The notes beneath the pieces are model-generated. The model saw nothing but the letters and a program-made list of their open reading frames with translations. It ran no database searches and was not told the origin of the DNA. A stretch of DNA of 64,000 nt from Hymenolepis diminuta (lineage: Eukaryota; Platyhelminthes; Cestoda; Cyclophyllidea; Hymenolepididae), in contig CAADRB010000053.1 of NCBI GenBank assembly GCA_900708905.1, forward strand, positions 881,721 through 945,720, read 5' to 3'. This document shows positions 52,157 through 64,000 of the stretch, piece after piece. Position numbers and translations under genes: made by a program. Every line of letters starts with the position of its first letter. Within the stretch, counting starts at the first letter, position 1.

Positions 52157-53198
52157 TTAACATACCGCTGTTACGCCGGCGTCTATGTGCGCTCGAAAAT
52201 GAGGGATATGCAAATGAGAATGCGCACAGGGGAGGAAGAAGAAGAAGGAGAAAAACACACAAAAGAGGTTTACTATACTTACCCGAAAAACGCAGTCGTT
52301 TATCAGAAAGGTCTCCGTCAAGAGTGCCCACCGTAGCAAGACTATCTCTTGACCGCTTACATGAAAACATGATATTACTATTGGTGTCCGTGTTGTTGTT
52401 CTGCGGAATCTGATTCTCCTGTTTCATAATACGATTCGCCTCATTCATGATGGAGGAGAATGTAAAATGTCCATTGATAGCGGCAGTTTCAGAAGCCGTG
52501 CGTTTATAAAAATTGCGGATACTAAATAGAAGTGTATAGAGGAGGAGAAATCAAGACCTTACTCTGTGCAAGCACCAGCTTCAAGTAAGATTTTCATGCA
52601 TCCTACATAACCCTGTCTAGCCGCTTTATGGAGAGCTGTATCGCCAGTTGAATCCTGAGTGTTAACACGGGCTCCACTCCTAATGAGAAGAATCACGCTA
52701 TCTTCGAAACCCATTTCAGCTGCTACGTGGAGTGGTGTAAGAAGAGATCGCTGGGCTGCAACATCTATAGCTCCTGCACGTGCCAAAACTGTGAGACAGT
52801 CAAGCTGATTAGCTGAAGCTGCCCAATGAGCAGGAGTCCAGTAGTTGAGAGTATCTACATCGAAGGGGCTGAAGTTGGTTCGAATGAGACATTGTTCAAG
52901 TCCGATGGCATCTCCTACGTGACTGAGATAATGAATAGGATATTGACAGAGAATCTCGTTCTGAAAATCTGATGTCTAAATATGTATTAAATAATGATTA
53001 ATATTAAATTAGCAATTTTAAGCAGAATATAACATTTATATATGATATATATGAAACATAATTAGGCATATATTACACTTTTTAATGTAACATTGCACTC
53101 TCAAATTAATGAAATTGTGATTTTTATATGAGAAAGTGTCTTTTACAAGGACTACAAGGTACTATAGATGATAACAAAAAGAGAACCTGACTCACCAT
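52157..53198 (-). CDS. ANKRD10: ANKRD10-like ankyrin repeat protein
   Basis: Spliced model: possible exon 1 ending in ATG at 53198-53196, exon 2 52960-52563, exon 3 52521-52283, terminal exon 52182-52157; 221 aa in total. Exon 2 (398 nt) is certain: CAG acceptor, GTAAGG donor, no stops, and ankyrin repeats around WTPAHWAASANQLDCL, LTPLHVAAEMGFEDSV and TGDTALHKAARQGYVGCM. Exon 3 joins in frame over a 41-nt intron, continues a fourth degenerate repeat (DIRNFYKRTASETAAI) and has a basic CKRSRDSL...DKRLRF stretch at the position of the basic RKR region in human ANKRD10. Its donor is GTAAGT. The last exon (CATAG acceptor, eight residues, TAA) and the ATG-only first exon (ATG followed at once by GTGAGT) are inferred from splice sites alone. 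Human ANKRD10 has a much longer C-terminal tail. Its molecular function is poorly known; a scaffold role is only a guess from the repeats. Confidence 0.82.
52522..52562 (-). other. 41-nt intron in the ANKRD10-like gene
   Basis: Donor GTAAGG at 52562-52557 and acceptor TTTAG ending at 52522. The flanking reading frames join (phase 2) into a continuous ankyrin repeat, which supports removal of exactly these 41 bases. Such short introns are known in flatworms and some other compact-intron lineages. The donor and acceptor regions must nearly touch. Confidence 0.85.
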
Positions 53199-54681: not shown

Positions 54682-56139
54682 ATATACACTGAAATTTATG
54701 TAAGAATAATTATGCTGCAAGGGACGACCAGCAGGTGGAAATGTGACAGTTGAGAGTAATTAAATCGAGAATGTTACATCCAAAGAATATGGTTGAGCAA
54801 TACTTAATAAATATTCAGTTTGGCAGTTTGCAACTACCATAAATTAAAAAGAATAAATTCAAAGATAATTAAATCAATTCTCGACGTTAAAACTTCAATA
54901 ATTTTTAATCAAATATCAAGTTAGTATGAGGGTATGCTATCAAGAATCTAAAAATACCATCTTGACAGTGGTTAAAAATCTTTTCTAATGCACGACTAGG
55001 AAAGAAAGGATTGAATAACGGGGAAAAAATCTATGAACAACTCATGGTTCGAAGGAAGATTCATAGACACAACTGGGTGAAGAAAAAGCTGGGTTAAAAT
55101 GATAAGTTCCAAGGTAATCACAGTTTCGCATGTCATACAACATAAAAAATCTATTCAACTAGAATATGACTAATTTAAATGATCGTATAAAAACTCTGAT
55201 CAGATTTGACCACTCAAATCGTGTAACTTATTCCGTTGGGGTTTTGAGGTCAAGTGTTTTGAGAGGGGAAAACTATCGTGGATATATTTTTCCCGACAAA
55301 AGATTATGTTTTTGTCTTATAATTTAAAATGAAATCTATAGAGGAGTGGGGGGTGGGAGGGGGAGTGGCTTTAGCTAAGAGAGATCAACGTAGGATGGAG
55401 GAAATTAGTTAAATTGTAGCTCCAATTGTACGAATTCAGCCACCACAAGATATTGGAAAAGGACAGAAGGGAGGCGGCAGCTTTACAATCAATAAGTAGA
55501 GTGAATCTCAAAACACGAGCATTAGATAGCGAGTGGAAATCAGTAAACCACTTAAAGGACGAGGGAGGAGTCACAGGCGGGACAAATTGAAATACAAATT
55601 GCTAAACGGATCGAAGTAGCAGTTCAAAGTGGGGTAGGGAATTAAGTCACAAATCTATGAATGCAATTTAAAATATCTGGCTTTTCTAATGAAATTACTT
55701 TTTTGAGTCACCTTCAGGATAATCTCTATAGAATTGAAATAAGCAGTATACTATTACAGGTATATCGGCCCATCCTGGATGCATAGTGGCGAAGAGGACT
55801 TCTAGACTTTCCTCGGACCATATCTCGGTCATCACAACTTGCTGGTGCTTGTTCTGAGCATAGACAGAGGTTCCATCAAAGTCGCCGTTGGCAATTGGAT
55901 TGTGGTGAAGTTCAGGGTCATGAGCATTGGGTTTCCAAGTTTGCATACCCCCTGAACTGACTGCGATCACCGGTGGTTGGAGAAAACATAAAAACATATT
56001 TAAATAAACTTTAAATTATGTGGAAAAATAGATATCAAGGATTAAAGTGTTTAAACTCTTAAGCTGTATTATTTTATTACGCATCTTTAATGCCCAAAAT
56101 ATTAAGTACTGTCTTTAATAATGTTAAGACTCTAAGCCA

Positions 56140-59205: not shown

Positions 59206-61344
59206 TTAGATCAATATCACTACTTTCCCTTTTATATTCAACATTTTTGCATGTGCACGATAATAGACAAGTTACAACACTAAACATTTGGATATTTAGA
59301 CGTCTTGATTGACATAAACCAAAGACTGCTCATAATTCGTTTGAATTAACAAAGACGACTGTTTAACCCGATCAAAAATGCCAGCATATTTGTCATTCTG
59401 ATTGGATCACGCTTGTTGTTAAAGCTATGCCAATAATGCTAAAGTTTGTCCTGTAACTGGGTTCTTTCGCCAAAAACTGACAACTTGTGTAAGCATTCGC
59501 AAAAGAATTACTGTGAATTGCACAATATTGCAAATACGGTAATAGTATTAGGAGTACATTCTAACATCGTTGGAGGGAAATTAAGGGTTATTTTCAAACC
59601 TTCTTGTCTAAGAAATTCTTATTCGATAAATAGTAACTAATATGAATGCTATCAAACTCGCGTTATCTAGGAATTCAACTTACCAGAACGCTGAGTCTTT
59701 GTTTTTTCTTCTAAGCTCTTTGCAGAATGCAGCGAGACATCTTGGTTCTGATATATCCACATGAACCTGAACATTCTAAAAAAGGAAAAATTAGACAGAA
59801 TTTACATAAGACAGCTAAACTATTAACTAATAAATTCAAAAAATTAATCTATAAAGTTCGATATATTATGCGGTTTCATCAGTTTTCTCGTCTAATTTAA
59901 CTTCTGCCTTGAAGGCTCTTAGTACAGAACGTGCACTCAAAAATAAATTATATATTTGGTGTTTGGAAAAAGGCATTTTGGCTTTAAAACATCCACAAAC
60001 ATATATCTATTAACAAGTTCACAAAGACAAGATATGCACTTATTGGATTCTGAAATTAATTATTAACTTCCTTTTCGCAAGCACGATAATGCGCACGCAC
60101 CTATTCGCGCATCCACAGACATAATTATCGATCGATTAATTTGCATCCTTTGGTGTATGCATTATCAGGTAAATTACTGATTTTTTCAGACGCGGTCAAA
60201 ATAAAACACTACAATGCTAAAATTTTCATGCAGTCGAAACGACTGTTTTGACCGTCATTACGTCAATAATGAATATAAGATAATTAGAGGGCACTAAATG
60301 ACTTGTTGACAGCTACCAAAATACTCTTTTTAGTCTCTTCAGCACGTTGGGAGTTTCGACAGATAACATGCACCTCAGCTCTAAAGCGAGCCAGCGCTAG
60401 GGAGCAGCAGTAGCCAATTCCCGAGTTAGCTTCGGTCACCAAGGCAATGCGACCATCCATGCATACTTCATCAAGTTTTCCAGGAACAAAACGCTTAGAT
60501 GCGCTTATGAAACCCGATCCAGATTAAAAAACAAAAAAATGTCACCTATAATTCAGAATTTCAAACAATAATAATCTCCGAGCCAATAGAAATGAAGTAT
60601 GACGCGCAACTCGTGTAAAAGAAGGGTATCCTGGAGAAAATGCAATAATAAATTCACATTCCACTTCTCTTGTTGACCAGTATTAATCAGTATGTTTGGC
60701 CATGTCTATCTCGTGACCAACGACTTAACAGACTTGCTTAACTACAGTATTCTTCCCTAGAACAAGCAGACAATCGTAATCAAGCCTCTCTAAATGGTAA
60801 ACTATCCCCAAAGCACAGCATAAACCAGGAGAATTGGCCATTCTACCCAACGTATATTCGTAAACGGGTTTAAAACCCATGACCTTCAAATGCGTAAACA
60901 GTGACATTATTGCTACCACTTAAACGGTTATTTGAGGCTATTTAGATAGTCACAACCCAAAGTTATAAAACTGAAATAGATATTAACCAACTAGCTGTTT
61001 TCTGAACTGGTTAACCAGACCTCAAAACAGAATGACATTCTGTGTCCCCAAAGGAAAAATACAAAATTCAAAGTACAACCAACAAACAAACTTTGTAAAC
61101 TCCTTCCGATAGAACGACAGAGTTCTGAAAGAAATGGAAAAAGTACTAAGAACTAGCAGGTGCATGGAATTCGAGTAAAACATCAAAAATCGATAACGGG
61201 TATGACCACTCAGGTTAGATCAAACCACTAGCACGCACTATGTATAACTCTAGGACAAGAGAAAAATACACTGCAAAGGTGAAACTTTTTTATATAAAAA
61301 AATCGATCACAAATACAATGGAGAGGGAAATAAACCATTTGATT

Positions 61345-62379
61345 TCAAGATCCAAGACTAGCTAACATCTTTCGAAATTTTGCAAATGAATAGATTGCAG
61401 AACGAGAAAGACCGGCAGAAAATAAGCCAAGGACGGTTTGTCTATAACTAGCCCAACGAACAATGGATGCAGTCGAATGTAACAGCCTCTTTCGTCTCTC
61501 CTCATAACTCATTTCGGCTAATTTGAGTCTTGAAGATATCAAGGAATGTTCCTGAGCAGCAAGTTGACAAATCGAAGCTGGTAGGCAATCAAGAAGTTCT
61601 TTAACAATCGCCTCCTTCATTTGAGAATGAATGTGCAAATCCGAATTCAAATCACACGGGACTTCAATGGAGAAAAGAGAGGAGAATGGTTGGGAGGAGA
61701 AAATGGGAAGATAGAGTTCGCGGAAGCCTCTTCTTCTCGGTTCACCAGTGATAAGTCGTTCAATTTTTTTCTTGTCCTCCCCGAAATACAATCTCCAATC
61801 ACCGCGATAGGAAATAGATGCTATGGAATGGTACAAAGCGTCTTCTTTCAGCAAAGGAAAATCAAGTTGCAGAAGTGAAAACGCCAAAGCTGAACGGAGA
61901 TTTTTGTTAAAAGAAGAACTCAGGTTTCCCTTGGGCTCGTATTGGGGTACAAATACGACAGGCTTTTGCAGCCGACCACTGATATATAAATCAGACCAAT
62001 TGTTGAGGTCCGTCAAAAGCTGACCAACACCAACAACACCGTATTTGAGCACTTGAGAGGGAAATGACTTAGTGGGATCATGCCAGGTAACAAGAGGATT
62101 ATAATAAACAGCAGGATGGGGCCATTTGCAAACAACATCTTTAAGAAGGGAGCCTGAATTAAGAGCCGCAAGACGGCTGTAATGCCTTGGATTAAGTTGG
62201 AGATTCGCAGTATGCCATTTTAAAGGGTCGTCCACAACTAAAATTATATCTAATTGGGAATTCGAAGTCGTACGGCCATGTTGAGGAACAGCAACAGAGC
62301 CGTAGCCAAAGGCAGAAACTAAACCGCAGTTTTTGGGGAATAGACTACGGACAATGAACTGTAGAAGTTTTGCAGCCAT
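61345..62379 (-). CDS. TAMM41: Phosphatidate cytidylyltransferase, mitochondrial (TAM41)
   Basis: Intact single-exon 344-aa protein. TAM41 makes CDP-diacylglycerol from phosphatidic acid and CTP on the matrix side of the inner mitochondrial membrane, the first committed step of cardiolipin synthesis. The nucleotidyltransferase signature is present: FGYGS at residues 24-28, the acidic strand LDIILVVDD at 43-51, then DPLKWHTANL (51-60) and HYS (66-68). Further conserved blocks follow: VYYNPLV, KYGVVGVGQLL, LYISGRLQKPV and, near the C-terminus, SIVRWASYRQTVLGLFSAG. Length is as expected for the family and no internal stop is seen. The ATG at 62379 shares its A with the TAA of SDHAF1, so the two could be read from one transcript. 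The family usually shows FAYGSG; here it is FGYGSV, a mild change. Downstream, 437 bases separate its stop from the DHRS12 remnant on the same strand. Confidence 0.95.
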   Translation of the reverse strand: MAAKLLQFIVRSLFPKNCGLVSAFGYGSVAVPQHGRTTSNSQLDIILVVDDPLKWHTANLQLNPRHYSRLAALNSGSLLKDVVCKWPHPAVYYNPLVTWHDPTKSFPSQVLKYGVVGVGQLLTDLNNWSDLYISGRLQKPVVFVPQYEPKGNLSSSFNKNLRSALAFSLLQLDFPLLKEDALYHSIASISYRGDWRLYFGEDKKKIERLITGEPRRRGFRELYLPIFSSQPFSSLFSIEVPCDLNSDLHIHSQMKEAIVKELLDCLPASICQLAAQEHSLISSRLKLAEMSYEERRKRLLHSTASIVRWASYRQTVLGLFSAGLSRSAIYSFAKFRKMLASLGS

Positions 62380-62666
62380 TATCCCTTATCTTTGGAAGGG
62401 AATGAGACGGTTGATATTCCCGCAATGCGTCCCTCGTTGAGGTCTTCAAGTCGTCGCTGACCCTGTCTGAGTAGAGTTTCGATTCTCACAAAGTGAGTCC
62501 TTTTGAGAGAATAAGCGTTCTTGCGAAACTCCTGCCTAACCACCTGTTTGATTTGGGGTTTTGCTGATTCTTCGATTTTCCCTGGACTTCCTGGACGAAG
62601 TGCTATCATATAATCCTTGTAAAGTTTCAACACTTGTCTTTGTAACTGACTATAAGGACGAGACAT
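62379..62666 (-). CDS. SDHAF1: Succinate dehydrogenase assembly factor 1 (LYR family)
   Basis: Single-exon 95-aa protein. Members of this family help insert iron-sulfur clusters into the SdhB subunit of mitochondrial complex II, in the matrix. The N-terminus LQRQVLKLYKDY (residues 8-19) carries the LYR-type motif as LYK at 15-17. A following helix with VVRQEFRKNA and then RIETLLRQGQRRL matches the order of conserved blocks in animal SDHAF1, which is of similar length (about 115 aa in human). I chose the ATG at 62666 because MSRPYSQLQRQ aligns with the family start; an upstream in-frame ATG at 62705 would add 13 residues encoded by a pyrimidine tract that looks like a splice acceptor. The TAA stop overlaps the start of TAMM41 by one base. 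LYK instead of LYR is a conservative difference. Identity by motif, not by database search. Confidence 0.93.
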   Translation of the reverse strand: MSRPYSQLQRQVLKLYKDYMIALRPGSPGKIEESAKPQIKQVVRQEFRKNAYSLKRTHFVRIETLLRQGQRRLEDLNEGRIAGISTVSFPSKDKG

Positions 62667-62690
62667 AACTACATGAGGTAAAAAAAAACT
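62667..62690 (-). promoter_or_regulatory. Acceptor-like site just before SDHAF1 start
   Basis: Read on the minus strand, a run of nine T and further pyrimidines ends in TAG at 62671-62669, and the SDHAF1 ATG follows after two bases. This is a good 3' splice acceptor (polypyrimidine plus AG). A second AG lies just before the T run. It could receive a spliced leader or a 5'-UTR exon. No upstream exon could be recognised, so which of the two is open. Confidence 0.5.
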
Positions 62691-64000
62691 AAGTGAAAAT
62701 AACACGTGCAGTTAAAGTAATGTGAGCACAGCTTATAAAAAGCTACGAAAACAGAGAAACGACTTAAGAAGCATAACTATGCGAAAAATTAACAGAATTT
62801 GATTTAAAATATATATCATAATCTACAAAATAATTGTCAATACTTCTTCGAAAACCAACAAACTATTTAAGATATTTTGCAAAAAAGAGTAACCAATTTG
62901 CAAAATAATTCTTACAACCAAGGCGCCAATTAGTAAAACAGATAAAGCAAAGGACATATATTAATTAAAATGAATACGCCAAAATCGTTGTTACTGGCAT
63001 GTATTTGAATCAAATAATAAAATAAAAGTATCAAATTTCTATTTTTAGACTTGAAATTAGATATTTTCGCATCGTCTATTGTCTCTACCGTTGTTGCAGT
63101 TTATATTATTGGGAACAAACAGTGTGATTATTGCAAAAAATATTATTAAGCCCGTATAGGACCTCTATTTTAAATTGGAAAGATACAATATTCTTTAAAA
63201 ATGCAGAATGAGCTGTGATGTCAGCGGGTAATCCGCCAATGTGGAGTCCGTGTGCACGTCTGCCAAGTCAAAGGTCATAAGATCAATGCCCAACCGCGTA
63301 AATCCAACGTACCCTTATTAATTCTGGTTAACAACAGAGATGGAAAAAGGGAAGTTGCTCGTAAGTGCTGCTTCAGAATAAGTTCCCTCTACTCCACTGG
63401 GCTTAGGACGTGTATCCTCTTGCACCCAGGATGATTGTTAATGACTATCCAAGATTTGTTCTCTGATCAATAACTTTTCCGGATTTCTGAGACACTGGTC
63501 TTATTCCGGACAGAGTAGGAAAGAGACAGATTATATATAATTCCGAAATCTTTACGAATTCGACATTCAAGGCTGAAGTGAGTACTTCGAACAAAATCGT
63601 TTTACATTGAACCACGCTGTTCATCCGAATTCAAATTAATTTTGCGCACTTAACATACATCAAATTCTTGTGTTTACTCGATAAACAATATTTGGAAATG
63701 AAGATAAACCACGAAGCTGACGTAAGTATATTCAATTCAAAAATTCGTGGTCTTAATGATACTCTTGAATGCAACTCTCATTTAGGACAAGGAGGTTTTG
63801 GAGATACAACAAATCATTCGTCCTAATTTGCATTCATCTACATAGTCTATTTCTCTCCCATACCCATTTCTAAATTCAAGGTGAACTAAAAATTGTGAAA
63901 TTGAGAAAGTTACGATCCGGCTTTTGTGGGGTAAGAAATATGCGTTGTTCACCTTTGAACTCCTACTTCAATTCAAACACAGAAACAATCTCGTTTCTCC
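62691..64000. other. Upstream of SDHAF1, no gene seen
   Basis: AT-rich, with SINE copy 7 near 63225. A 60-codon plus frame at 63252-63434 overlaps the SINE and is not taken as a gene. No TATA or CCAAT arrangement for SDHAF1 was clear. Confidence 0.6.
63225..63300 (+). repeat. tRNA-derived SINE, copy 7
   Basis: Plus-strand CACGTCTGCCAAGTCAAAGG then TCATAAGATCAATGCCC matches the head of the family. This is the only copy seen in this orientation. Confidence 0.5.

What the first reader, a model, noticed from the sequence alone, without database searches (positions are those of the whole stretch)
62376..62384. SDHAF1 and TAMM41 overlap as TAATG: a possible dicistronic mitochondrial pair
The TAA of SDHAF1 and the ATG of TAMM41 share one base on the same strand. 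Both genes are single-exon and intact, and both act at the inner mitochondrial membrane (complex II assembly and cardiolipin synthesis). Either a dicistronic mRNA is translated by stop-start reinitiation, or a spliced leader enters at an AG within the end of SDHAF1 (pyrimidines ending AAAG about 10 bases before the ATG).
Basis: partly seen in the sequence, partly recalled or inferred. Interest (0 to 1): 0.78.

Follow-up and report, generated by a model that had tools for sequence, protein, structure and literature searches.

The report
Overlapping tapeworm mitochondrial gene pair
[quoted passage not shown] the two genes also appear joined or neighbouring in other tapeworms and flukes, so this is probably one more flatworm operon, unusually tight, whose RNA processing is still to be measured.

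Summary
On the minus strand SDHAF1 (95 aa, 62666-62379) and TAMM41 (344 aa, 62379-61345) are intact single-exon ORFs overlapping by one base as TAATG. No other same-strand pair of ATG ORFs of 90 aa or more lies within 30 nt in the window, and 60 simulations gave none. The genome is a Hymenolepis tapeworm (closest named TAMM41: H. weldensis, 96%). The linkage looks old: six flatworm gene models fuse the two genes (Taenia, Paragonimus, Schistosoma), and 5 of 7 SDHAF1 hits share a contig length with a TAMM41 hit. Fused models are a known footprint of flatworm spliced-leader operons (PMC12582326), so a conserved operon is the best reading. How TAMM41 is expressed is unresolved. None of 14 polyadenylation hexamers lies in the SDHAF1 ORF, and start-codon contexts also allow translation of one dicistronic mRNA. 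No RNA data were available.

The parts
62379..62666 (-). SDHAF1 ORF, 95 aa, single exon (first cistron)
   Evidence: Pfam PF05347 E 1.4e-7; homologs P0121-P0127 at 69-98% identity in alignment A3; one match in own genome. No PDB relative at E 0.001 (best 0.99, unrelated). The name SDHAF1, as against another LYR protein, rests on recalled similarity to known SDHAF1.
61345..62379 (-). TAMM41 (mitochondrial phosphatidate cytidylyltransferase) ORF, 344 aa, single exon (second cistron)
   Evidence: Pfam PF09139 E 1.8e-69; PDB 6ig4 E 5.8e-31; one match in own genome.
62377..62381 (-). TAATG stop-start overlap, one shared base
   Evidence: Read directly. TAMM41 AUG context A at -3, G at +4.
62669..62690 (-). 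candidate 3' splice acceptor 2 nt before the SDHAF1 ATG (T-run, then CATGTAG|TT ATG)
   Evidence: 97.5th percentile of 7174 AGs on both strands of the window by a home-made score of motif and pyrimidine content. Cis or trans use not tested.
   Evidence: Tract 98.6th percentile, but 0 of 3 informative motif positions; combined 69.8th percentile. SL AUG would be out of frame.
62359..62368 (-). alternative acceptor ACTTCTACAG| seven codons inside TAMM41; an SL ending in AUG would be in frame
   Evidence: 2 of 3 motif positions, combined 77.0th percentile, tract 54.2nd; in-frame ORF of 338 residues. Residue able to end in AG (Q or K) in 12 of 15 cestode or cestode-like rows, not in P0004, P0009, P0013.
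61289..61294 (-). TATAAA, the nearest polyadenylation-like hexamer 3' of TAMM41
   Evidence: Of 14 hexamers none occurs in the SDHAF1 ORF; AAGAAA, AATGAA and TTTAAA occur once each inside TAMM41. No AATAAA or ATTAAA on this strand 60300-62800.
60847..60907 (-). possible first exon of a third same-strand gene (SDR, DHRS12-like), 437 bp after TAMM41
   Evidence: Exon read by eye. Next exon 60290-60523 hits SDR models below their curated cut-offs. The DHRS12 label is recalled.

Best explanation
SDHAF1 and TAMM41 form a two-gene flatworm operon whose linkage probably predates the split of tapeworms and flukes (inferred). One promoter upstream of SDHAF1 gives a transcript covering both ORFs (inferred). 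SDHAF1 is translated as the cap-proximal ORF of an RNA that probably keeps TAMM41 as its 3' part, since none of 14 polyadenylation hexamers lies in the SDHAF1 ORF or in the first 150 nt of TAMM41. TAMM41 is made mainly from RNAs cut free by spliced-leader trans-splicing at an acceptor close to the junction, inside coding sequence of SDHAF1 or of TAMM41 itself (inferred from how flatworm operons work, not shown here). The one-base overlap is then extreme compaction of a known kind of operon.
For: Overlapping intact ORFs. Fused SDHAF1-TAMM41 gene models in T. solium, T. crassiceps, P. heterotremus, P. westermani, S. haematobium (cluster of 16) and S. mattheei, 6 of 35 flatworm or flatworm-like TAMM41 rows. 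5 of 7 SDHAF1 hits (P0122-P0125, P0127) share their longest-contig length with a TAMM41 hit. The fusion junctions differ between species, and in P0023 the junction skips the conserved FxYGS motif, as expected of annotation errors over a tight pair rather than true fusions. PMC12582326 (sections and passages): cestodes have a median of 448.5 operon candidates, genes in operons are often annotated as chimeras, and 81% of predicted S. haematobium operons come from chimeric models. PMC7653826 (passages): three SLs in H. microstoma, all ending in ATG. No PAS hexamer in the SDHAF1 ORF.
Against: No RNA evidence. Both acceptors just before the TAMM41 ATG are weak and would put the SL AUG out of frame. 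At the in-frame acceptor 62359 the codon cannot end in AG in 3 of 15 cestode or cestode-like rows. The genomic ATG sits at the same aligned position in 10 of those 15 rows (window and P0001-P0009; the other five, P0011-P0015, start 3 to 11 residues earlier), which leans towards use of the genomic AUG rather than the SL AUG. All 45 S. mansoni operon pairs with UTR predictions and SL sites had at least 5 bp between cistrons (PMC12582326). My remembered SL fragment found no match in this genome. 29 of the 35 TAMM41 rows are stand-alone models that say nothing about the neighbour.
Confidence: 0.55

Rival explanations
1. One mature dicistronic mRNA is translated twice: ribosomes end SDHAF1 at UAA and restart at the overlapping AUG, or skip the SDHAF1 AUG and scan to the TAMM41 AUG.
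For: UAAUG is the arrangement used for termination-reinitiation in influenza B segment 7 and the retrotransposon SART1 (PMC5972666, passages). TAMM41 AUG context is strong (A-3, G+4), SDHAF1 AUG moderate (G-3, T+4), and the only AUG between them is the weak in-frame Met19. None of 14 polyadenylation hexamers in the SDHAF1 ORF. The genomic ATG keeps its aligned position in 10 of 15 cestode or cestode-like rows. Drosophila has 159 annotated dicistronic pairs, spacing -34 to 319 nt where only polycistronic transcripts exist (PMC4528330, passages).
Against: No UGGGA motif in the 102 nt ending at the SDHAF1 stop. SDHAF1 is 95 codons, long for ordinary reinitiation (recalled). Lack of out-of-frame ATGs is forced by the codons in use: shuffle mean 0.0; with pooled codon usage P of none = 0.15. 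Only a 6-bp hairpin next to the stop, not compared with shuffles. Flatworms have an SL system that makes this unnecessary.
Confidence: 0.22
2. TAMM41 has its own transcription start inside SDHAF1, so the pair is not a functional operon.
For: PMC12582326 discusses internal promoters as a source of trans-spliced RNAs, shown for specific cestode genes.
Against: Only SDHAF1 coding sequence lies directly upstream, and the genes are linked in both cestodes and trematodes. No promoter test was possible.
Confidence: 0.13
3. Sub-case of the best explanation (its probability is counted inside that 0.55): the TAMM41 mRNA gets its start codon from the spliced leader; SL joined at 62359, seven codons in, supplies an in-frame AUG and the genomic TAATG is not used.
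For: Flatworm SLs end in AUG (PMC7653826; PMC12582326). Of seven acceptors tested only 62359 opens the TAMM41 frame. CTACAG fits 2 of 3 motif positions.
Against: The right frame comes up by chance about 1 time in 3 per site, and several sites were tested. Weak pyrimidine tract (54.2nd percentile). The codon cannot end in AG in 3 of 15 cestode or cestode-like rows, while the genomic ATG keeps its place in 10 of the 15.
Confidence: 0.1

Closest known systems
Flatworm spliced-leader operons (PMC12582326; PMC3254664; PMC5832876)
   Same: Same-strand, tight, mostly two-gene loci; often annotated as chimeric models; found in cestodes and trematodes; 23% of S. mansoni polycistronic units reported as monoexonic (PMC5832876, passages).
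   Different: ORFs overlap here by one base; 45 of 45 S. mansoni pairs examined had at least 5 bp between cistrons, and gene models that overlap were left out of the published distance analysis. SL use on TAMM41 not shown.
Ciona operons and C. elegans SL1-type operons
   Same: No intercistronic sequence: in Ciona the median distance between cistrons is 1 bp (PMC7986045, passages).
   Different: There the boundary is a polyadenylation site abutting an SL acceptor; here the coding regions themselves overlap and none of 14 PAS hexamers lies in the first ORF.
Drosophila dicistronic mRNAs (PMC4528330)
   Same: Two ORFs on one mRNA, spacing can be negative (passages).
   Different: Spliced-leader operons are not part of that description; the organism here belongs to a group with SL trans-splicing.
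UAAUG termination-reinitiation (influenza B segment 7, SART1; PMC5972666)
   Same: Identical stop-start overlap (passages).
   Different: No UGGGA core upstream here; cellular genes, no evidence of coupling.

Membership tests
Flatworm SL operon | Same strand and at most 300 bp apart (or a chimeric model), as in PMC12582326 | tested here: met
   Overlap of 1 base; fused models in relatives.
Flatworm SL operon | Organism has SL trans-splicing | tested here: inconclusive
   In print for H. microstoma, with SL-RNA loci in H. diminuta; my own pattern search with a remembered fragment, up to 3 mismatches, found nothing.
Flatworm SL operon | SL reads on the second gene | not testable with these tools
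Flatworm SL operon | Acceptor motif UUNYAG near the second start | tested here: inconclusive
   None of five AGs from 62390 to 62319 fits fully; 62359 and 62319 fit 2 of 3, 62345 1 of 3, 62390 and 62385 0 of 3.
UAAUG termination-reinitiation element (TURBS type) | Overlapping stop-start | tested here: met
   TAATG at 62381-62377.
UAAUG termination-reinitiation element (TURBS type) | UGGGA core upstream, complementary to 18S helix 26 | tested here: not met
   No TGGGA in the 102 nt ending at the SDHAF1 stop.
TAMM41 / Mmp37 family | PF09139 over cut-off, full length | tested here: met
   235 bits vs 24; profile 12-322 of 322.
SDHAF1 (LYR family) | PF05347 over cut-off | tested here: met
   31.8 bits vs 24.8. 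Assignment to SDHAF1 within LYR proteins rests on recalled sequence; NCBIfam gave no hit.

The most novel reading that the evidence does not exclude
A nuclear animal gene pair kept together since before tapeworms and flukes split is translated from one dicistronic mRNA by UAAUG stop-start coupling, tying complex II assembly to cardiolipin synthesis at the level of the ribosome, in an organism that could have used a spliced leader instead.
Probability: 0.12. Interest if true: 0.65.

Novelty: new member of a known kind. Interest (0 to 1): 0.35.

Why it matters
It adds a probable ancestral operon linking complex II assembly with cardiolipin synthesis, and a clean place to ask how a flatworm separates two ORFs with no room between them. 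It also has a practical side: none of the 7 SDHAF1 hits in the protein search carries a source name, while SDHAF1 appears inside fused TAMM41 models, so SDHAF1 seems to be missed or fused in at least some public flatworm gene sets.

Tried and rejected
Leaky-scanning signature: no out-of-frame ATG in SDHAF1, but the synonymous shuffle also gives none, so it carries no information. TURBS motif: absent. Real fusion protein: rejected, because junctions differ between species and P0023 loses the FxYGS motif. SL-RNA gene search with a remembered Echinococcus leader fragment: no match. Tricistron with Cwc15 as in the T. crassiceps model P0129: in this genome the one Cwc15 match lies on another contig (C150, 42,885 bases), so not supported here. 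Third gene downstream (SDR): kept only as a lead; models hit below cut-offs, and the 55698-56015 ORF, which I thought a later exon from recalled DHRS12 sequence, has no hit in Pfam, NCBIfam or PDB. Rfam scan of the window: no match at gathering scores. Literature: TAMM41 together with SDHAF1 in a flatworm or operon setting not seen in the listings (1 paper; 40 of 1,645 listed; 7 papers); this is not proof of absence from print, since the supplementary tables of PMC12582326 could not be read and most subscription papers are not held.

Full report
What is there. On the minus strand the last codon of a 95-aa ORF (62666-62379) and the first codon of a 344-aa ORF (62379-61345) share base 62379 as TAATG. 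The second ORF is TAMM41 (PF09139, 235 bits against a cut-off of 24, nearly the whole profile; solved relative 6ig4, E 5.8e-31). The first is a LYR protein (31.8 bits against 24.8) that I take as SDHAF1 from recalled sequence; it has no PDB relative at E 0.001 and no NCBIfam hit. Each has a single match in the 170.6 Mb genome, at this place. An in-frame TAA starting nine bases before the TAMM41 ATG (read from the sequence) rules out an earlier start in the genomic frame.

Chance. With ORFs of 90 aa or more on one strand and at most 30 nt between stop and start, the window holds one pair, this one; 60 Markov simulations of two 64 kb strands hold none. The pair is real. Whether -1 exactly is selected cannot be said from one genome.

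Organism. The best named TAMM41 hits are Hymenolepis weldensis (96%) and H. microstoma (86%). The genome is a Hymenolepis, probably H. diminuta (inference).

Conservation. In the TAMM41 search (128 hits, 120 listed), 5 of the 27 best rows (P0001-P0027) are fused models; rows P0028-P0120 list only PF09139. A second search with the five fused models adds P0129 and seven further rows that group with flatworms (P0128, P0130-P0135; four of them unnamed), so 6 of 35 flatworm or flatworm-like rows are fused (that search scored only the 7,995 candidates sharing most words). They come from Taenia solium, T. crassiceps, Paragonimus heterotremus, P. westermani, Schistosoma haematobium (16 members) and S. 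mattheei. My Pfam scan of five of the six put the LYR domain over its cut-off in three (P0010, P0019, P0129), just under in P0023 (23.5 vs 24.8 bits) and well under in P0026 (15.5 bits), where the SDHAF1 part is read from the alignment with P0023. P0025 I did not scan; its precomputed Pfam list holds PF05347. The other 29 rows are stand-alone TAMM41 models and say nothing about the neighbour. Independently, 5 of 7 SDHAF1 hits have the same longest-contig length as a TAMM41 hit (20076, 6526, 2754, 5620, 6337); P0121 and P0126 do not. Order, strand and distance on those contigs were not visible. Together this places the linkage in both cestodes and trematodes.

Meaning of fused models. PMC12582326 (abstract and sections 9, 10, 14, 15 read; first parts of 5 and 16; passages elsewhere) reports that genes in flatworm operons are often annotated as chimeras, that 81% of predicted S. 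haematobium operons came from chimeric models, and that some operons are shared by cestodes and trematodes. It recognised chimeras with SL reads, which I do not have. Gene models that overlap were left out of its distance analysis. The junctions here fall at different places in different species, and in S. haematobium the junction removes the conserved FxYGS motif, so I read them as annotation errors over a tight pair.

Mechanism, leader entry. The acceptor 2 nt before the SDHAF1 ATG ranks in the 97.5th percentile of 7174 window AGs by a home-made score. The sites before the TAMM41 ATG do not rank well: 62390 69.8th, 62385 42.2nd. 62359, inside TAMM41, is 77.0th. Flatworm leaders end in AUG. 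Joined at 62390 the AUG opens a 15-codon wrong frame, at 62385 a two-codon frame ending in the same TAA, and at 62359 the TAMM41 frame. Against 62359, the codon there cannot end in AG in 3 of 15 cestode or cestode-like rows (window, P0001-P0009, P0011-P0015; the fused P0010 was left out of that alignment), and the genomic ATG keeps its aligned position in 10 of those 15, while P0011-P0015 start 3 to 11 residues earlier. Starts in these rows are those of gene or ORF callers. Joined at 62669 the SL AUG would be out of frame with SDHAF1, so that acceptor may serve a 5' UTR intron.

Mechanism, one dicistronic mRNA. None of 14 polyadenylation hexamers occurs in the SDHAF1 ORF, and the first in TAMM41 is TTTAAA at 62224. 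There is no AATAAA or ATTAAA between 60300 and 62800 on this strand. AUG contexts are moderate for SDHAF1 and strong for TAMM41, with only a weak in-frame AUG between. Against: no UGGGA motif, and the lack of out-of-frame ATGs carries no information. Drosophila shows that such mRNAs are annotated in animals (PMC4528330, passages).

Verdict. A new, very tight member of the flatworm operon class is the most likely reading. The overlap forces a choice between an acceptor inside coding sequence and translation of two ORFs from one mRNA, which public RNA reads should settle.

Noticed in passing
60290-60907, minus strand: SDR-like gene (DHRS12-like by recall) whose first ATG lies 437 bp after the TAMM41 stop on the same strand; a possible third cistron.
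   Followed up: partly
P0129 (Taenia crassiceps); C150:23288-24085 in this genome (L002): One Taenia gene model runs Cwc15-SDHAF1-TAMM41; in the window's genome the only Cwc15 match is on another contig.
   Followed up: partly
P0121-P0127: None of the seven SDHAF1 hits carries a source name, suggesting SDHAF1 is missing from or fused in named flatworm gene sets.
   Followed up: partly
52562-52975, minus strand: Ankyrin-repeat exon (PF00023 E 5.8e-20).
   Followed up: no
L003:8900-9457, plus strand: Rho-family GTPase-like ORF upstream of the pair on the opposite strand (seen, identified by eye).
   Followed up: no
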